24,871 bases of DNA from Paraglomus occultum (taxonomy: Eukaryota > Glomeromycota > Glomeromycetes > Paraglomerales > Paraglomeraceae). The stretch is taken from positions 1 to 24,871 of the forward strand of contig CAJVPJ010000446.1 of the NCBI GenBank assembly GCA_910592205.1, given 5' to 3'. Within the stretch, counting starts at the first letter, position 1. Each line of letters starts with the position of its first letter. The notes under the pieces were generated by a model that was not told the origin of the DNA, did no database searches, and saw nothing but the letters and a program-made list of their open reading frames with translations. This document shows, in pieces, positions 3,569-24,472 of this stretch. The position numbers and the translations under genes are program-made.

Positions 3569-5682
3569 TCATCTTCTTTTCCTCCTCCCCCAACTGACTC
3601 TCCTCTTTTACAACACATTCCCCATCTCCTCCCCTCATCTTATACACATCTAAGCACTCCTATAACACATGAAGAACTATATGATGCTATAAAATCAAAA
3701 GAAGATCACTCATCTCCTGGCCCTGATGGTCTCCCTTATAAATTCTATAAGCTTTTCCACTTATTGCACATATACTCATTCCAATTTTCTCTATGATATC
3801 ATCTGGTCTTTTTCATCCTCCACCTTCATGGTCTAAAACTACAACTATTCTTATCCCAAAAAAGAATTCTGACCCCCATTATGTTACTAATCTTCGACCT
3901 ATTACTTTATCCAATACTGATATTAAGCTACTTTCCACAATTCTTGCTTCACGTTTCCAAACTCATGCTTCATATTTAATCCATCCATCTCAAACTGGCT
4001 TTATGAAATCACGTAATATATATGACACTATCCTTGATATAAATTATTTTAGCACCATTCCTAATCCTCCTCCAGAATCATTCCTTCTCTCTGTTGACTG
4101 GTCTAAGGCCTATGACCGAGTTTCTCATCCCTGGATAGATTTTCTCCTCAATTCCATCTTCCCCTCTTCTTTTGTTCATCTAACCCATTGCACATATCAC
4201 AATCGTTCTACATTTTTTCAAATAAACTCTTCTCTCTCTCCTCCTCTTCCTATTCATCAAGGTGTCCCCCAAGGAGACCCTTTTTCACCCCTCCTATTTA
4301 ACCTATCTATAGAACCACTTTTTAATTTTATTAGATCCTTTCCTACCTTGGTTATTCGGGCTTATGCAGATGATACAACAATTTTTGGTCACTCCCTTAA
4401 TGATTACTATCTCCTACAACAAATTTTTTCCTTATATCAAACATGTACTGCTGGCACCATCAATTTACAGAAATCTTCTATCTTTCCCCTTACTCCTCTC
4501 TCCTTTCCTTCTCATTCTCTCCCTCCTAACTCTCCACCTATTGTTTCCTCTCTCAATATTCTTGGCTTTCTTCTCCCTATTAATTCATCAAATACCTCCA
4601 TACTGTGGCAGTCACTCCTTAACAGAATCCGTCATCGTTTATCTACTCTCTCTTCTAGACACTTATCCCTAAAAGGAAGAATCTTGGTTACAAAATCTCT
4701 CATCTTGTCTAAAGTTTGGTATCAAGTTCCAATTAGTCCTCCACCTGCAGACATTCAACGGTCAGTTCAAACTCTTATCAATTCTTACATCTGGAATAAT
4801 TCTCATGTACATCCTTCTTTTGAAGTTTCCACACTACCCCTCTTGTCAGGAGGTATTAATTTTCCAGACTTTTCAACTGAATGTCACATAAGGATTGCCA
4901 AATTAGTAGCTCAATGTTTTGACTCTGAACCTCCAATATGGATCAAATGTCTAAACTTACTCACCCTCAATTCCTTCCAAAAAAGTCTTCCATACCTCAT
5001 TCTCAATAACATTGCTCCCTACTCTGCTCCTTATCCCATTAAATCCATCCTCTCTTCAGCCAAGAAAATTCATCTTAAATCTCCCCTTATACTTACATCA
5101 TCTCCATCTCTTTCTATTCTTTGTAATATCATTTGTTATAAATCTCCACTCCCACTAACTCCTTTTTCTCCTTCTCATTATATTGGTTCTCTTTCCTGGA
5201 AAGAAATTCATCACCCCAACTATCCTAGGAAAGTTTCAGACCTTCTCTGGAAGATTGCCCATCAAATTCTCCCAATAGGTTTAGCAGTCTCCAAAATCTG
5301 TCCTTCTTCCTCCTCATGTCCCTGGTGCCATGTTTGCCCTTTATCTATTTCACATCTTTTTCACTCATGCTCTCATGCTTCTCTCATTTGGTCACGTATC
5401 ATCAAGCTATGCAATTATTTTCACCATAACTCAAGCCCTTCTACTCTTCTCCACTCTCCCCATTTAAAACAATTCCACTTTACTGCTCGTCTTCTCATCT
5501 CTGCTGCTCTTTGGACAATTTGGACAGACTATACTTCCTATGCTTTCTCACATTCTCCTCTTTCATCTTCAGTTCAAACCCTCAATTCCATGTTGTCCTT
5601 CCTTATAAGTTATAGTCACCTACATCCTCCTGTTCCACACTGGCCTTCTCCCTCTCAAATTGCAACCATTATTCTACACTAG
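3569..5682 (+). pseudogene. LINE reverse transcriptase with C-terminal zinc finger, one frameshift
   Basis: A 629-residue frame runs from the ATG at 3793 to the TAG at 5682. The preceding about 220 nt (3569-3793) read in another frame with the upstream RT block SPGPDGLPYKFYK, and one T missing near 3751-3756 explains the shift. In the 629-residue frame, residues 25-60 hold the LRPITLSNTDIKLLSTILASR block. Motif A is SVDWSKAYDRV with Asp102. Motif B is GVPQGDPFSPLLF (157-169). Motif C is YADD (191-194), and motif E LNILGFLL lies near 254-261. A zf-RVT type finger follows: Cys509, Cys512, His521, Cys526. The catalytic aspartates are intact. The protein would reverse-transcribe the element RNA at the target site, but the copy lacks its N-terminal endonuclease and is broken. 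I do not assign a LINE clade with confidence. Confidence 0.85.
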
Positions 5683-6549: not shown

Positions 6550-8230
6550 TACTTATCGGATGGTAATTGTGTGTAATTTTTTTTGATCGATTCTTGGTCG
6601 CTTTCGACCGTAGACGCAGAGTCCATTTCCTGATAAGTCGTCTGTGATGGTTTGCCAGAAGTTAGAGGGGTTACATTGTCGGCTTTTTCTGGTTGTTTTT
6701 GTTTTCATGATTGAGTCGACTGGGAGCCTTTTGTATTTTTGAACGGCGACTGGTACATAAGTAATCGTTTTCAGAGAGAGCAGTCGAAGTCGGTTTTGGG
6801 TTGTCATTGGGTATTTGATATGTCGATGTGTTTTCAGTAAGATAAATCCATTTACTTTCAGCCATGGATAGAGTGATAAATAAAGTTGGTAAACCTTTTG
6901 CATTTATCATAGTGTTTAAATGATGCTTTTTTCCTTGAAATTAGAATCACCAGTACGAATAAAGTACGCAAAGACATTGATTTTTGTTTATCTACTATCA
7001 TTTGATCAGTATAATAACTTTACGTAACAATTGTATGGCAGAAAGGGATGCATGTATAGAATTAACATGCTGGTGATATATGCGTGCAGTGTTTTGAAAA
7101 TTTCGTAATTTTTCCAGTTGCATATATGACCACATTATCCAAACAGCGTGAAGGCGAAAGCGGGGGTCATATCCCATCCCATTAGTTGAAATTTAATATA
7201 CTTCCCATATGTCATTATTTTAGCATTAAAATTCAAACGATTACATAAGTCACCATAAAATCCACGACCATATCAGGGAATAAAACGGCCGCTAGTTCAG
7301 GATCATTAAAACAAAGTGGTATTTGACTCCTTGGAAAATCTATAGCTAAACGAAAGTAATGAGCATCTTCATTATGTATTTCATCAGGGAAGTCATACGA
7401 TGGTACAACTATATCTGATAAATTTACGGGAGCAATAAATTCATTATTACTATCTGATGCGTGGGTTGTCCGTGGCCAGACGGTAGGAGATGTTTGGGAA
7501 TTATGTGCGAGCAAATGCAAAGCAATGGAATGGCAAGCAGACAGATAGAGATTATTTTATTGGAGCCAATCACAAGCATAACGTAATGATGGATGATACC
7601 AGCAATTGTCAGGAGCAGATAAATCAGCAGTTTGCAGAAAAGCCCTAATAATACCTGAGTTGAGTGAAAATGTTCTTCGGTTTTTGGAATATCCCATTTG
7701 ACCAGTGAGCAATCGATATTCGGCAAAAGGATTTGTACCAGAAAAACGACCTAGACTAGTATGTAAATAGATAGGAAAAAAAATTTTCTTTTGGCATATG
7801 GTACATCGTGGATACATCGAGGTATTAAAACCATGTTCTGTTATTAGAATTCGATTTACATCCAACGCAAACTGCAATTTTGTTGGATTGCGTGGACTGA
7901 CTGTAAGGTTTATTTCTGGTAAAGACATTTCCAATGGATATGTAACGTTATTGTTTCGGGTTATCCATTTTACAGATTGCGGGTATAGCAAGCGTGAGCA
8001 GTAAGAGCAGGGAAGCATGGAAACTGTGCATAATCTTCTTCGTAAAGTTAACGTAATATTTTTTAAATTCATTGGAAGACGCCAATATTGGGTTGTTGAG
8101 CCATCAAAAGCCTGGGTAATTGGCATCTCGGACGGAAAAGAGCGATTGCCATTATTGATAAATAGCGATCTGAGAAAAATTTCGCTGTTTCGAGACTATC
8201 AAGGGTAAATATATCGATGACTTGAGACAT
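6550..8230 (-). pseudogene. Helitron Rep/helicase, N-terminal half, broken
   Basis: On the minus strand an ATG at 8230 starts a short frame that shifts near 8196 into a long one. That frame includes MPITQAFDGSTTQYWRLP at 8126 and runs to a TAA at 7557-7559. Beyond that single stop the same frame continues to 7233. Recognisable blocks are a cysteine-rich module with CSYCSRLLYP and RCTIC, then SLGRFSGTNPFAEYRLLTGQ and the DIVVPSYDFPDEIHNEDAHY region leading to LFPD. After a frameshift near 7255 come the Helitron_like_N blocks GFYGDLCNRLNFN, YGKYIKFQLMGWDM, WSYMQLEKLRN and, at 6910-6840, GLPTLFITLSMAESKW. This matches the region upstream of the HUH nuclease in eukaryotic Helitrons. The HUH His motif and the helicase are absent. 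Downstream of 6840 similarity fades into a basic, low-complexity frame ending at 6553. Confidence 0.8.
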
Positions 8231-8664
8231 TTTTCTTTAGTTTATTGATTATTTTTCTTCACGTTGAATTTGTTTATAAGTGATAAGTGAAAGCTAACTA
8301 AAGAGAAATAAGAAAGGGTTGACGACGAGTTGTATAACGTTTTATTGTAGTCGGGGTGATCAATAAAATGCTAATCAGGGTAGTACAATTTCTCGTACAC
8401 ACAAGTTGGATGACTATTAATTAATTGTCATATATTTCTCACGTTTAAATTTTTTTAGCACCACCCTTATAATTTTAGTCGGTCAATCGGGCGCACAAGT
8501 TCTGCAACTTTCGTTCGACAAAATTCCTTTTCCATAAAAACTAAACTCGTTTATTTTTCCGTGCATTGATTTACTGTTGATCTGTCATGATTTAGGAAAT
8601 TGCGCTAACCTCATTTCTAAATTTGTAAGTGCAAAGTCCGGCCATTTTTATATATATCTATATC
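8231..8664. other. Possible Helitron 5' flank, nothing firm
   Basis: AT-rich sequence upstream of the minus-strand Helitron gene. A TGATCAATAAAAT string at about 8358 recurs at about 11645, near the other Helitron-like fragment, and could be element-derived. No TC-type 5' terminus could be fixed. Confidence 0.3.
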
Positions 8665-8742
8665 AAGTTCTAGAACTAGATCTAGAACTAGCTCTTGATC
8701 TAGAACTAGAACTAGCTCTTGATCTAGCACTAGCACTGGCTC
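8665..8742. repeat. CTAG-rich hexamer minisatellite
   Basis: About twelve hexamer units of the CTAGAA / CTAGAT / CTAGCT / CTTGAT / CTAGCA kind follow each other. A higher-order pattern is present (CTAGAA CTAGCT CTTGAT repeats). In one frame it reads as Leu-Glu/Leu-Asp/Leu-Ala dipeptides, but the frame has no ATG and is not believed to be a gene. The units contain CTAG palindromes, so the single strand can fold on itself extensively. Confidence 0.75.
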
Positions 8743-10045
8743 ACTTTTTTTCGCCTCCGTGCTGTACTCTTTTTTATAAAAAAAAATAATACCAAAACTG
8801 TGTATCGTTGCTCAAACATAAAAATGTAAATATTCCGTGTATCGACTTTTCATATTGCACACTGATTATTCACTTGCTCTGTAATGAAGTAACATTTTCG
8901 ATATTTGTTGTATATGCCGAAGTTTCTTGCGTTCATACAGCAATTGTTTTTGATTGTCCTTGACATCCATCTTATTGCTATCTTTAGCTATCCCATCGTA
9001 TATTTCTTAACCAATTATTTGTGCTTCGTAAATGTATAAATTTAATTTAGGTTATGTGAAATTATTAAACCATTGTTATTTGCCTTGATATTATATTTTA
9101 CACGATGAACGATTGGTTCAGAAATTTAGTTTATTATACATGATCGTTGCTCTTTTTGCCTTCTTTCTTCCTTTGCTATAGTTAAAGTTTAACTTTTATT
9201 GTTATGTATAATTCTAGACTTCGAATTATAGAAGAAAAGTTTTTCTTTCAAATATGAAAATCTTATTTACCCAGCCAAAATTTTTTCAATATCATCGGAC
9301 AACATTCATCCGACATGTCACATGACGAAAAAAATATTCTTATTCGCTGAGATTCGATTTGCCTCTATCGATAATGCAGATTGCTGTTTCACAAATTTCC
9401 ATTTAGTTTTCTTCTAAATGAGTAACGTTACATTATTATTGTGTGCTTACAGTACATAAACAGATATTTATGTTATGTTGATTTGCGCCATTTAGTTAGA
9501 GAAATGTATATTTATAAACTTCTTTATTATTACTTATTATATGGTACAAACGCTTACTGCTACTTAGTCGTCATCTCCCGATGTTATGTTCGTTTCTATA
9601 TATTTTATTGAACTTTTCAAGAACAAACAAATAAGGATAGTACTGATTACAATCATCTTTCACTTCCAGTGGTTCGTTCAGTTTACTAGAAAGTTAGTCT
9701 ATGAGAACGAGACACTATACATGATGTTAATAAATTCAACAGTTTCATGTAAATTTGATTAAACACACTCCCGGACCTGATTTGTATGTGCAGTTTGTGA
9801 AACTGATATTCGAATAAGTTATTTTTGCGTTAGCCTTATATTATTTGTATGCTTATGGTATATAAACAGATGTTTGTGACATTTTTTATGTAAGTAATAA
9901 AGATACTAAATAAACTTTTTATTATTGTTATATCAAAGTCCAAAACTCAGTTATGTTGTTATATCTCTTGAGAATAATATAAATTATATCTGTGTGCGAT
10001 AACCAACGTATTTTTGTTGCTTTCAGCTTCCTACGTGATTGCAAA
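8743..10045. other. Long AT-rich stretch, no gene recognised
   Basis: No homology-bearing frame was found. Two segments resemble each other as a diverged direct repeat: about 9445-9480 and about 9848-9885 share GCTTA then TATAAACAGAT. No TIRs or introns are evident. Confidence 0.4.
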
Positions 10046-10365
10046 ATGCCGAACACTGCTACAGTCTCTGTCATTGTTTACACAAAAGACGTGGTCAAAC
10101 AAATAATTCAACGAGTCGCCGCTTATCAATATGAAACTGATTGCTTCCAAGATATTACTTACAGTACTTTTTAAATGCAAGCAGAACTTATCGGTAAGAC
10201 TTTAATGTCAATGATTTTGTTCAATTTACCGGAAGGCTTATCTACGAAAATAAAACTCAATACTAATACATGACAATAATAAATACAACAGTTCTACGGG
10301 ATAGGACCTTAGACTCACACCTATCCGATCCGATAACGCACTTCCACTATCAACATCAACCATAA
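10046..10365 (+). pseudogene. OB-fold-like protein fragment (copy 1)
   Basis: An ATG at 10046 opens a 42-residue frame ending at TAA 10172-10174. From 10198 a shifted frame reads FNVNDFVQFTGRLIYEN, passes one stop (TAA near 10261) and continues as INTTVLRDRTLDSHLSDPI to 10365. The alternating hydrophobic beta-strand pattern, with a central FTGR/ISGK-type turn, is OB-fold-like. It parallels the frames at 19875-20396 (QISGKFKPLKDNSF) and 21956-22436 (VTGKFKMLNNGSL). In intact form such a protein could bind single-stranded DNA, for example during Helitron replication. That role is inferred, since the similarity was judged by eye. A PIF1 helicase tail lies 0.75 kb downstream on the same strand, as in the second copy. 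Confidence 0.45.
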
Positions 10366-19874: not shown

Positions 19875-20396
19875 GTTTATAACACCTGTTTGTCAATCTA
19901 CACTTTATTGAATACAAAGGTCACTCAACGGTTACAACAAGGCGGGATATATCAAATTTCCGGAAAATTTAAGCCACTTAAAGACAATTCCTTTAATGTC
20001 ATAATTACAACTAGCATACGGATACACATAGACGAAGAACATGCACCCATCTCAAAACCGATCGCCCATTTAATCGGCAATACTACAACCCATGCTGATA
20101 TTACCAAGACGGGTTATACCTTATGCTTACAAGTAAAGCCCTACTTATCGAAAGACCAGTTTCAACCGTACACGATAATGTTAACCCATCCTGCTAATGG
20201 CCGATTGAAAAATGCTATCACGAAATCGAAAAAAAATTCATTGATACATGCGACTGGAATTTTATTCTTTCTAGAAAAGCAAGTCTACTGTGAGTTATTG
20301 GAATATCAATTCATTCCGGCACGCACGGATACCGATGACGGAATCACAGTCCCTTGGAAAAAGTCGCAAACAAGACGAACGGCAAATCGGTCATAG
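19875..20396 (+). CDS. OB-fold-like protein of a Helitron (copy 2), partial
   Basis: An open frame runs from just after a stop at 19872-19874 to TAG at 20394-20396, about 173 codons. It has no ATG near its beginning (19890 is TTG), so it is probably 5'-truncated or preceded by an intron. The chain shows two beta-rich blocks. The first holds YQISGKFKPLKDNSFNVIIT, the second GYTLCLQVKPYLSKDQFQPY. A strand pair, NSLIHATGILFFLEKQVYCE, follows, and the end is basic. The pattern resembles an OB-fold single-strand DNA-binding (RPA-like) protein. The same blocks recur at 21956-22436 (VTGKFKMLNN; GYHLTLEVKPYLSSE). The PIF1 tail and Helitron terminus follow directly, suggesting a DNA-binding accessory of the Helitron. 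That role is inference. Confidence 0.5.
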   Translation, partial: VYNTCLSIYTLLNTKVTQRLQQGGIYQISGKFKPLKDNSFNVIITTSIRIHIDEEHAPISKPIAHLIGNTTTHADITKTGYTLCLQVKPYLSKDQFQPYTIMLTHPANGRLKNAITKSKKNSLIHATGILFFLEKQVYCELLEYQFIPARTDTDDGITVPWKKSQTRRTANRS

Positions 20397-20397
20397 A

Positions 20398-20718
20398 GCA
20401 AAGGATTGCGCAAATGCGGCATACTTTTACAACGGCGGTCAACGAGCTTCGAGAACACAATTTCCATTACAAAACTCTTTTGCATTAACTGTTCACAAGA
20501 CACAGGGCCTCACACTACCTTGCGTATCTTTAGCACTCGACCAAAGTCTATTCTCAGCAGGACAAGCTTATGCCGCCCTAAGTAGATGCCCAACATGGGA
20601 ACATGTTCAAATTATGAGTCTACATAGGGACGCATTCAAAACTGACCCCGAAGTAATAAAAGAATACCAACGCTTACAACAAATAGCCACTAATATTAAT
20701 AATATTATAACTGATTAA
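20398..20718 (+). pseudogene. PIF1/Helitron helicase C-terminal fragment (copy 2)
   Basis: An open frame of about 107 codons ends at TAA 20716-20718 and overlaps no stop. Its start is unclear. It reads RTQFPLQNSFALTVHKTQG, the region leading into SF1B motif V, then LALDQSLFSAGQAYAALSRC, with motif VI (AYAALSR). About 50 charged residues follow. It is the most complete PIF1 tail in the window and has no internal frameshift. Helicase motifs I to IV are absent because OB-like sequence lies directly upstream in another frame, so on its own it cannot be an active helicase. It immediately precedes the Helitron 3' end, the normal position of the helicase C-terminus in these elements. Confidence 0.8.
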
Positions 20719-20898
20719 ACATATGATATGTAAACAAACTATTATTAAAAGAAACATAAAACGTACTAACTAAAATATAATACGTCAATCTACTATCATC
20801 ATGTCAAACTTACCCGCCATAACTATCTAATCAAACTACCATCGCATTTATTTAACTACACGCACTTTACATCCAATTAACATTGTAAAGATGTCACG

Positions 20899-20939
20899 AC
20901 CGGCCGATGAAATCGGCCGGTAGCACGAGTCACTTCTAG
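20899..20939 (+). repeat. Helitron 3' terminus: hairpin plus CTAG
   Basis: The stem ACCGGCCGAT (20899-20908) pairs perfectly with ATCGGCCGGT (20912-20921) around a 3-nt GAA loop. Fourteen bases later comes CTAG (20936-20939), and then T. GC-rich hairpin, short spacer, CTRR end and T as the next base together are the Helitron termination signature. Confidence 0.85.
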
Positions 20940-20942
20940 TTA

Positions 20943-21602
20943 ATATGTAATTACAGAAATAGAGGCAGGCATTGTAGTTTTATCAGAAGAAGAATAGGCA
21001 TGTTTAGAAAATATATGTACAGAGAAACTTTTTAGTTTAATAAAAGTGAGGATAATCTGGCTTGCTCATTTATTATTATGTCTTTTTTTTTCTGTGTATA
21101 GATGTTGTCACTGAATTGCAAAATTTGTTTATCTTTACAAATATGGCATGTGATTTGTTTACTGTTCAACAAGTACCACATCAGCTCCAGCTCAGGTGTT
21201 CTGACCTGAACATTTCTACATAATAATAAATATGACTTAATGTGGCATAATATAAGAACTTATATTCATATTCAGAAAACTTAACGCGGCATAAAAATAA
21301 GAACTTAGATTCATATTCATATTCATAGAAAAATTACTGACTAATATTACATGCTAAAAATATAACAGCTATAAATTGATTGACCCAAAGTATGATTACA
21401 TGATACAATGTAATTGAGTGAGTGCAACTAACTCTTTGTTATAAAAACTGTCAATTACAGGTGGGAGGGGAAACACAAGAAAAATTGACATGTTAAAGCA
21501 TGCTGACATGAAATTAAGAGCACAAAGATATTTTGTACATGCATAATAAAAAGCTAAAATTGATTATATAATACTGTAACAGTTTGGTTTTTGGTTTTTG
21601 TG
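20943..21602 (+). repeat. Left arm of the long inverted repeat
   Basis: It matches the reverse complement of 22541-23209. It contains two tandem units beginning ACTTAATGTGGC / ACTTAACGCGGC (about 21236 and 21282), each followed by ATAAGAACTTA. It has few CpG sites. Where the right arm has CpG it usually shows TpG or CpA. Confidence 0.85.
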
Positions 21603-21955: not shown

Positions 21956-22581
21956 TTGACTTCCAAATATGATTGCGAACATTCAACCATATTAATATTG
22001 TACATAACATCTATCTCTGAACAAACACTTTCTAATTCTAATAAGATATTACAGAAAGGTACCACCGCATGTAAAGTCAACAGTGCTGGTGACTTTCTCA
22101 ACATTCAATTCACATTATGGTTACCATCTGACAAATTACCTGAAGAAGACTATTATGTTGAAAAACTCTACACAGATTCTATATTAATATGTTTTGTTAC
22201 TGGAAAATTTAAAATGTTAAATAATGGATCCCTGGAACTCATTCTTTCATCCTGCAAGAGTGTATTAATAGAAAAAGAAAAAATGCCAGTGTAAGCCCAT
22301 TATCTATTTATTGGGAAAAATCAAGGAGGCTTGTAGCACTACTGATTTAGGATATCACTTAACTCTCGAAGTCAAACCATACTTATCATCCGAACCGTGG
22401 ATGTCGTACGTCTACAACAAAAACGAACGAGACTGACGAGGAGATAAGCGGTGAGAAAGATACAATCTCGTCGGTGGAAGCGGTAGATATATCGAAGGAG
22501 TCGGATAAACGGGAAGAAAGTACTCCGCAACAGAGACAGTCAGGAAAAAACCAAAAACCAAACTGTTACGGTATTATATAA
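21956..22581 (+). pseudogene. OB-fold-like protein (copy 3), frameshifted, inside the long-IR element
   Basis: An open frame without ATG (TTG at 21956) runs to TAA 22292-22294. It contains NIQFTLWLPSDKLPEED and then VTGKFKMLNNGSLELILSSC. From 22335 another frame reads GYHLTLEVKPYLSSEPWMSY to TGA 22434-22436. From 22423 a third frame continues as an acidic-to-basic tail with TDEEISGEKD and QQRQSGKNQKP, to TAA 22579-22581. The first two blocks align by eye with copy 2, so this is a diverged homologue with at least two frameshifts. The tail is CpG-rich and runs into the right arm. Single-strand DNA binding is inferred, not shown. Confidence 0.5.
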
Positions 22582-23209
22582 TCGATTTTAGCCTTTTATT
22601 ATGCATGTAGAAAATATCTTTGTGCTCTTAATTTCATAGTCAGCATGCTTTAACATGTTAATTTTTCTTGTGTTTCCCCTCCCGCCCGTAATCGACGGTT
22701 TTTATAACAAAGAGTTAGTTGGACTCACTCGATTACGTCGTATTACTATTACGTAATCATACTTTGGGTCAATCAATTTGTAGCTGTTATATTTTTAGCA
22801 CGTAATATTAGTCAGTAATTTTTCTATGAATACGAATACGAATCTAAGTCCTTATTTTACGCCGCATTAAGTTTTCTATGAATATAAATATAAGTTCTTA
22901 TTTTACGCCACATTAAGTCATATTTATTATTATGTGTAAATGTTCAGGTCAGAACACCTGAGCTGGAGCTGATGTGGTACTTGTTGAACAGTAAACAAAT
23001 CACATGCCATTTTGTAAAGATAAACAAATTTTGCAATTCAGTGACAACATCTATCACTTTATTTTTATACACAGAAAAAAAAAGATATAATAATAAATGA
23101 GCAAGCCAGATTATCCTCACTTTTATTAAACTAAAAAGTTTCTCTGTATCTATATTTTCTAAACATGCCTAAAACTACAATGCCTGCCTCTATTTCTGTA
23201 ATTACATAT
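22541..23209 (-). repeat. Right arm of the long inverted repeat
   Basis: The inverted partner of 20943-21602. It keeps many more CpG dinucleotides than the left arm, for example four within 22681-22699 where the left arm has none. Its first about 40 bases overlap the 3' end of the OB-like gene. Confidence 0.85.
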
Positions 23210-23392
23210 ATTGCTCAACAAACAATAGAATCAATAAATGAATACACTATACAAAAAGGTCTTGCTTACTGTCACCTACCTGAAAATCATACAAGCAATA
23301 TGATTTACTTACCTTGTACAACAAGAAGAAGAAGTGGATGAATCTGAGAAAAGCAAATCTTTAATTGGTGACAAATTGAATGGAATAACTTA
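23210..23392 (+). pseudogene. Coding-like segment interrupted by the pogo-like element
   Basis: From about 23309 the plus strand reads VQQEEEVDESEKSKSLIG and then DKLNGIT, ending exactly at the TA target of the element starting at 23393. Beyond the element (24147) the frame would continue for only about eight codons to a stop. The rest of the segment shows no recognisable gene. It may be a remnant of an acidic protein gene. I cannot name it. Confidence 0.3.
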
Positions 23393-24146
23393 CAGTTGAA
23401 GCTGTTTATAGTGAATCTGGTTAAACGGAATTCTGGCTGTAGTGAACCAAAATGCTGAAACCCCGAAATTTTATTAAATAATAAATCTGTTTATAGTGAA
23501 TTTTATTAATAAATTTGTTTATAGTGACTGTGAACTTGTTGTTCAAAGCCCCAAATCGAAATTTCATATGATATTCCCGCTTTTTATTGTAGACTGTCAC
23601 ATAAACGTAGCATGGGAAATTATTGTATGATTAGGCCATTAGCCAAATTTAGTTAGTTAATAGTAACCAGACTGTAAAACAATTGCTGAACAATGCTAAC
23701 ATTTCAGCAAATAATTATGTTCACATTGAAGATGAGAACAATTAAATAATCCTTACTGATGAAGATGTAAGAGCAAAAGTGAAGCTGAAATGGTAGAAAG
23801 TTAGAAACAATAAGTAATAGAATGGCCAGTATATCAATTACAATTGACACAGTTTTAAAAAGTTTATATCAACAAGGACCAGAATTTGGCGAAGTTGTCA
23901 AAGAAGTAAAGATTTTGAGAGCATTACACAGATGGGTGGGAGAAAAATCTTAAACAAGTTAGTTTTCACCATTTTGAAGATAAAATGATTGAACAGTAAT
24001 TGGGAGAGTAGTTGGGAATAATAAAAAGGCCATTGTTGCACATGTGTATTTATGTCACATGACATTCATTATAATGAATGCTGGCTATTACTATAGTAAA
24101 CCAAAAGTCTTAGACTGGAACAGTTTACTATAAACAGCTTCAACTG
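23393..24146. mobile_element. Short pogo/Tigger-like element with TA duplications
   Basis: The termini CAGTTGAAGCTGTTTATAGT at 23393-23412 and its perfect inverse at 24127-24146 are flanked by TA at 23391-23392 and 24147-24148. A TGTTTATAGTGA motif recurs just inside the left end (about 23403, 23489, 23516), a typical subterminal binding-site array. At 754 bp it can hold only part of a transposase. It is a non-autonomous deletion derivative. Confidence 0.8.
23720..23955 (+). pseudogene. C-terminal tail of a pogo-like transposase
   Basis: Fragments in different frames read NNYVHIEDENN, ILTDEDVRAKVKLKW and then ITIDTVLKSLYQQGPEFGEV, with a following VKILRALHRW stretch. An acidic LTDE(E/D) segment followed by a helical tail is what ends pogo/Tigger transposases after the DDE core. 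Stops and frameshifts separate the pieces, and the DDE core is absent. Location inside matching TIRs supports the assignment. Sequence similarity alone would be weak. Confidence 0.45.
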
Positions 24147-24148
24147 TA

Positions 24149-24472
24149 CTTATTACATGGAAAATTTACCTAATTTACTCAACAAAGATTTCCTTGACAT
24201 GATAATTATTTCTCATGTCAGGTTGCCTATTGTAATATCTGATTGTCCCGCTTTACCTTTGATTCCACAGTTTATGGCAAGACCATTAATTCCACTTCTG
24301 TGACAACAAGGGCATTTGCATCACTGAGTATCTCAGGAAAGGTGAAGACTGATCAATGAAATCATTATAAAACATCCATCAAATGGACACCTGGCAAAGT
24401 CAATAACAGCAACACAAAAGAATGCTACCATCCAGTTCTAACAATTCACACAAAAAAACTTACTGTATACTT
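24149..24472. other. Unassigned region
   Basis: A 36-codon open piece containing FTFDSTVYGKTINSTSVTTR (about 24251-24355) looks protein-like but is short and unrecognised. Nothing else was identified. Confidence 0.3.

What the first reader, a model, noticed from the sequence alone, without database searches (positions are those of the whole stretch)
19875..20939. Helitron 3' part pairing an OB-fold-like ORF with a PIF1 tail
The order seen is an OB-like frame, then only the motif V-VI end of PIF1, then a hairpin plus CTAG-T terminus. Helitrons are known to encode Rep-PIF1 proteins and in some lineages RPA-like proteins. Here an OB-like single-strand-binding candidate sits directly against a headless helicase tail. 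This suggests a fixed non-autonomous Helitron family carrying its own DNA-binding protein.
Basis: partly seen in the sequence, partly recalled or inferred. Interest (0 to 1): 0.75.

Follow-up and report, generated by a model that had tools for sequence, protein, structure and literature searches.

The report
Dead fungal Helitron with SSB-like gene
This is a broken remnant of a rolling-circle jumping gene (Helitron) in a root-symbiont fungus; its relatives carry a second gene whose predicted shape is closest to bacterial single-strand-DNA-binding proteins.

The parts
19917..20422 (+). Truncated tandem-OB (SSB-like) gene remnant OB1: residues ~62-229 of P0002; first OB fold incomplete, second complete; frame changes near 20360; no start, no proper C-terminus
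   Evidence: pN 0.13 against pS 0.80 relative to C1204
20410..20418 (+). Private OB/helicase junction with 4-nt microhomology (CAAA): left side follows C1204-type OB DNA, right side C681-type helicase DNA
   Evidence: boundaries also
20416..20718 (+). C-terminal end of the Helitron Rep-helicase (PIF1 motif V-VI region), headless, with stop
20899..20921 (+). 3'-terminal hairpin, 10-bp stem, GAA loop
20936..20939 (+). CTAG Helitron 3' terminus, followed by TT as in C681, C1319, C1204, C160
21995..22557 (+). Second, different tandem-OB gene remnant (OB2, P0022/C1319 type)
23180..24438 (+). Third tandem-OB gene remnant (OB3, C962 type), interrupted between about 23352 and 24106
6683..8087 (-). Fragment of the N-terminal third of another Helitron's Rep-helicase (C183 type, residues 54-530)

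Best explanation
The stretch is a decayed, 5'-truncated Helitron 3' part in a Paraglomus genome. Its parents are Helitrons with two genes: a Rep-helicase that nicks the element and drives rolling-circle transfer, and a tandem-OB protein that most likely coats and protects the displaced single strand, doing with an SSB-type fold what RPA-like proteins are proposed to do in plant Helitrons and animal Helentrons. Internal loss or template switching at short microhomologies joined the OB gene to the last codons of the helicase more than once, giving non-autonomous derivatives. The window copy is one such product, now dead. Shown: OB gene remnant, helicase tail, terminus, junction, OB gene next to Rep-helicase in related loci, purifying selection on the OB gene in the past, predicted SSB-like fold. 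Inferred: ssDNA coating, mobilisation in trans, and the mechanism of joining.
Against: No biochemical evidence that the OB protein binds DNA; a fold match shows no function. Sequence family searches find neither SSB nor RPA; the OB-type Pfam hits are sub-threshold (PF01336 E 0.09 and RMI1_N_C E 0.14, each in 1 of 15 members). The link between the C1118/C183/C77/C496 OB genes and the window's family is one profile match, P 2e-4 (probability 47%) with 15 sequences and P 0.003 (probability 11%) with 70; the best of 30 shuffles reached P 0.014 and 0.037. C1142, a complete Rep-helicase of another clade, has no OB gene. In 10 loci OB DNA lies upstream of helicase DNA, so gene order is not constant and unexplained. 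The 5' boundary of related copies reads TTAACACAG, not TC.
Confidence: 0.78

Rival explanations
1. The window copy is a member of one fixed non-autonomous Helitron family (5' end - OB - helicase tail - hairpin-CTAG) that keeps the OB gene because it is useful to it, as proposed for the rice Mothra mother element.
For: C598, C1190 and C927 share a contiguous OB-spacer-tail block (1058, 856 and 1609 aligned bp at 70, 70 and 77%); C1204 runs from a shared 5' region to CTAG with the OB inside; the window tail groups with the tails of C598, C927 and C1190 and of three loci of unknown order (local support 0.93).
Against: The window junction is different and private; C598-type copies lack helicase codons that the window has; OB frames are broken in C1204 and the window, and OB matches in C598, C1190 and C927 are partial; no recent copy shares both window OB and window tail.
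Confidence: 0.12
2. Two neighbouring Helitron fragments (an OB end of one, the 3' end of another) came together by chance deletion in the host chromosome, outside any transposition cycle.
For: The region is a Helitron graveyard with three different OB remnants within 4.5 kb; OB and tail have nearest relatives at different loci (C142/C1204 against C681/C715); the junction has only 4 nt of microhomology.
Against: OB upstream of the helicase tail on the same strand recurs at seven loci (window, C160, C598, C1190, C219, C253, C927), more than unrelated deletions would readily give; in three the DNA is contiguous and shared.
Confidence: 0.3
3. The OB frame is a captured host gene (for example a mitochondrial SSB) rather than a Helitron gene.
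For: The fold resembles SSB, and Helitrons capture genes.
Against: Same-strand OB beside helicase DNA at many diverged loci, saturated synonymous divergence with a conserved protein, many diverged copies in one genome (21 and 31 matching stretches), no Pfam SSB hit at E up to 1 in 15 members.
Confidence: 0.05

Closest known systems
Plant Helitrons with RPA-like gene, and rice Mothra (PMC4683698, passages read)
   Same: Rolling-circle transposon with a second gene for a putative ssDNA-binding OB protein; a non-autonomous family whose mother element keeps it without Rep-helicase
   Different: Plant protein is an RPA homolog; here the predicted fold matches two-OB bacterial SSB best and no RPA family is hit; host is a glomeromycete fungus
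Helentrons with RPA ORF (PMC4067079, passages read)
   Same: Rep-helicase plus a second ssDNA-binding ORF; 3' palindrome
   Different: That ORF has RPA70 DBD-A/B; Helentrons carry an endonuclease and target T-rich sequence; here the end is hairpin-CTAG
Fungal Helitrons of Pleurotus and Fusarium (PMC4289320, PMC5148889, passages read)
   Same: Fungal Rep-helicase Helitrons
   Different: No RPA-like gene in the Fusarium elements and no RPA domain in the Pleurotus RepHel, by those papers
Deinococcus/Thermus SSB
   Different: No detectable sequence similarity; a long C-terminal acidic-then-basic tail; encoded by a transposon

Membership tests
Helitron (canonical type) | 3' end CTRR with a short hairpin about 10-12 nt upstream | tested here: met
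   Hairpin 20899-20921 and CTAG 20936-20939, spacing 14 nt; feature as stated in PMC5148889
Helitron (canonical type) | Rep-helicase gene | tested here: met
   Only the tail in the window; Rep (PF14214) plus PIF1 (PF05970) in related loci
Helitron (canonical type) | 5' end TC | tested here: inconclusive
   Window copy is 5'-truncated; related copies share a boundary near TTAACACAG rather than TC, true end not fixed
Helitron (canonical type) | Insertion between A and T without target duplication | tested here: inconclusive
   T follows CTAG; TT in 5 of 5 copies with intact CTAG; C1204 has A before TTAACACAG but C1277, C947 and C1196 have T; no empty site found
Fixed non-autonomous family sharing OB, tail and end | Several copies with the same OB/tail junction | tested here: not met
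   0 of the other 18 matches share it; C598/C1190/C927 share a different one
Helitron RPA-like protein (RPA70 related) | Sequence similarity to RPA70 DNA-binding domains | tested here: inconclusive
   No family named RPA at E up to 1 in 15 members; the general OB family PF01336 at E 0.09 in 1 of 15; no RPA or SSB chain among PDB sequence hits
Helitron RPA-like protein (RPA70 related) | RPA70 DBD-A/B fold arrangement | tested here: inconclusive
   RPA chains score lower in Foldseek (E 1e-4 to 5e-4, TM about 0.26) than SSB (E 9e-9, TM 0.55), but single domains were not modelled alone
SSB-like tandem-OB protein | Two OB folds per chain | tested here: met
   Model m9c50983ca9d4, pLDDT 85, residues 1-197 aligned with 1se8; the model is of P0001, 84% identical to the window frame over 86% of it
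SSB-like tandem-OB protein | Binds single-stranded DNA | not testable with these tools
   Needs protein

The most novel reading that the evidence does not exclude
Helitrons of arbuscular mycorrhizal fungi carry their own dedicated SSB-type (tandem-OB, Deinococcus-Thermus-like) single-strand-binding protein as a standard second gene, acquired independently of the RPA-like genes of plant Helitrons and animal Helentrons. Non-autonomous derivatives repeatedly arise in which this gene sits next to a stump of the helicase.
Probability: 0.55. Interest if true: 0.65.

Novelty: new variant of a known kind. Interest (0 to 1): 0.5.

Why it matters
How Helitrons handle their single-stranded intermediate is not settled. 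A recurrent, selected gene for an ssDNA-binding type of protein, of a different fold class from RPA and in a group where the papers read report none, would suggest that rolling-circle transposons acquired such a protein more than once, and would make the role testable by comparing SSB-type and RPA-type helpers. It would also place a large unannotated protein family of Glomeromycota.

Tried and rejected
The first structure job (9 close sequences) gave pLDDT 35 and was not used; the second, with 70 sequences, worked. Idea that the window copy is a further deletion of the C598/C1190/C927 type: rejected, because those copies lack about 30 helicase codons that the window keeps. Idea of an OB-helicase fusion protein: not supported, the helicase frame differs from both OB frames at the junction; not seen in the loci examined. 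Empty-site test with the joined flanks of C1204 found only C1204 itself. Sequence searches for SSB/RPA kinship found nothing usable; the best Pfam hit over 15 members was unrelated (TBCA_PH E 0.002, 1 of 15). In the second look at PDB no RPA chain appears among the 50 rows shown; that does not exclude it. In the viral library the best match was an unnamed protein (E 3e-9), with a phage SSB and baculovirus LEF-3 below it. Whether Rhizophagus copies also sit in Helitrons was not examined; no contigs of named fungi were fetched.

Full report
WHAT IS THERE. The window lies in a 32.3-Mb, 1408-contig assembly. An OB protein encoded at contig C1319 is identical to P0017 of Paraglomus occultum, which lies on a contig of the same length, 10,506 bp; the window is therefore very probably from that arbuscular mycorrhizal fungus. 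The frame 19875-20396 is open for 173 codons, but homology to full-length relatives starts at 19917, at residue 62 of P0002, and is 73% to residue 218. From 20360 homology also appears in another frame and ends at 20422. The helicase tail begins at 20416 and its frame ends with the stop at 20716-20718. The DNA left of 20415 follows the OB gene of C1204, the DNA right of 20418 follows the helicase of C681, and the two share only CAAA at the join. The terminus is a 10-bp hairpin and CTAG, with TTA after it.

CHANCE. Hairpin plus CTAG of this quality occurs 4 times in 231,497 held bases and 3 times in total over 20 shuffles. The four are the window, C1204, C160 and C1319, each within about 0.7 kb downstream of an OB or helicase gene. 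The held bases were picked by similarity, so this controls for composition only.

OTHER COPIES. The 1065-base query has 19 matches in the genome, itself included. The 141-base end has 4, itself included. A 31-base pattern of the terminus with up to 3 mismatches finds 2, the window and C1201; C681 is missed because its hairpin has a deletion. Among the ten 3' ends that I aligned, CTAG followed by TT is intact in five (window, C681, C1319, C1204, C160), degenerate in three (C1201, C486, C476) and not recognisable in two (C1190, C927). C598, C1190 and C927 share a contiguous OB-spacer-tail block: 1058 bp at 70% (C598/C1190), 856 bp at 70% (C598/C927), 1609 bp at 77% (C1190/C927). Their OB matches are partial (P0002 residues 106-239 in C598, 149-230 in C1190, 212-231 in C927). 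Translation shows the basic OB C-terminus and its stop in all three, with frame breaks before it in C1190 and C927; a spacer of 367, 340 and 294 bp (C1190, C927, C598) follows, and the helicase begins at LTLP. A weak protein match in C927 (residues 126-227 of the C1319 piece, 36%) reaches further upstream, but the DNA alignment does not support it. The window retains about 30 helicase codons before LTLP, so it does not descend from that arrangement. C1204 (about 7172-10182) has a shared 5' region, a frameshifted OB gene and its own hairpin-CTAG end, and no helicase match in the held stretch.

THE PARENT ELEMENTS. Six loci have Rep and PIF1 domain matches close to complete: C1142, C1118, C1319, C183, C77, C496; the Rep match is partial at C77, and the Rep-helicase frame is broken in C1319, C1118 and C77. 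In five of the six an OB gene lies downstream on the same strand: C1319 (3682-3035), C1118 (1472-609, in a 314-codon open frame), C183 (5538-4535, in two pieces), C77 (2973-1970, in two pieces), C496 (5655-6191). Only the C1319 gene matches the window's OB family directly (33% over 212 residues to P0002). The C183, C77 and C496 genes match the C1118 protein (E 3e-8, 6e-9, 2e-9), and the C1118 protein aligns end to end with the family profile: P 2e-4, probability 47%, with 15 sequences; P 0.003, probability 11%, with 70; best of 30 shuffles P 0.014 and 0.037. So the link is likely, not proven. C1142, the most canonical, has no OB match. In C844 Rep fragments also precede an OB. In ten loci the OB lies upstream: directly before helicase-tail DNA in seven (window, C160, C598, C1190, C219, C253, C927), before mid-helicase DNA in C962, and before the Rep N-terminus in C739 and C402. 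Whether these ten show a second gene order or tandem and rearranged copies I cannot decide.

HOW IT MOST LIKELY WORKS. By analogy with RPA-carrying plant Helitrons and Helentrons (PMC4683698, PMC4067079, passages read), the OB protein probably covers the single strand displaced during rolling-circle transfer. This is inference. The window copy no longer makes it.

PRINT. Read in passages: RPA-like genes are known in plant, zebrafish and sea anemone Helitrons and in Helentrons (PMC4683698; PMC4067079); no RPA domain was found in Pleurotus RepHel (PMC4289320) nor an RPA-like gene in Fusarium Helitrons (PMC5148889). The held main text of the P. occultum genome paper does not contain the word Helitron (PMC9453076). 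Two Rhizophagus transposon papers name Helitrons twice each, without RPA or SSB in the passages seen (PMC11075540; PMC8647823). Search listings only: Helitron with OB-fold gives 4 papers, none of them by its title on a Helitron-encoded OB protein; with OB-fold and 'single-stranded DNA-binding', 0; with 'single-strand binding protein', SSB and transposon, 0; with Glomeromycot-, 9 listed, 2 of them read in passages as above. Only open-licence papers are held.

NEIGHBOURHOOD. Two further OB remnants of other subfamilies follow at 21995-22557 and 23180-24438. A pair of inverted arms, 20943-21599 and 22546-23209, 90% identical, encloses the second one; the left arm starts three bases after CTAG and mirrors the start of the third OB gene. 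I have no explanation for that coincidence.

Noticed in passing
20943-21599 and 22546-23209: Inverted repeat of about 660-bp arms, 90% identical; the left arm begins 3 nt after the Helitron CTAG and is the reverse complement of the start (about 40 bases) of a third OB gene plus its upstream DNA
   Followed up: partly
21995-22557 and 23180-24438: Two more tandem-OB gene remnants of different subfamilies on the same strand, so three OB remnants in 4.5 kb
   Followed up: partly
3751-5682: 643-codon frame with reverse transcriptase (RVT_1 E 9e-27) and zf-RVT: a non-LTR retrotransposon
   Followed up: no
6683-8087 (-): Fragment of another Helitron's Rep-helicase (C183 type, residues 54-530) in more than one frame
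   Followed up: no
C183 11145-7042 minus (L031, L043): Uninterrupted 1368-aa Rep-helicase; the OB gene downstream is split into two pieces at about the same residue as in C77, perhaps by a short intron
   Followed up: partly
L012 (C1204 about 7461-8579): Tandem repeats of about 250 bp in the 5' region of the OB-bearing element
   Followed up: no
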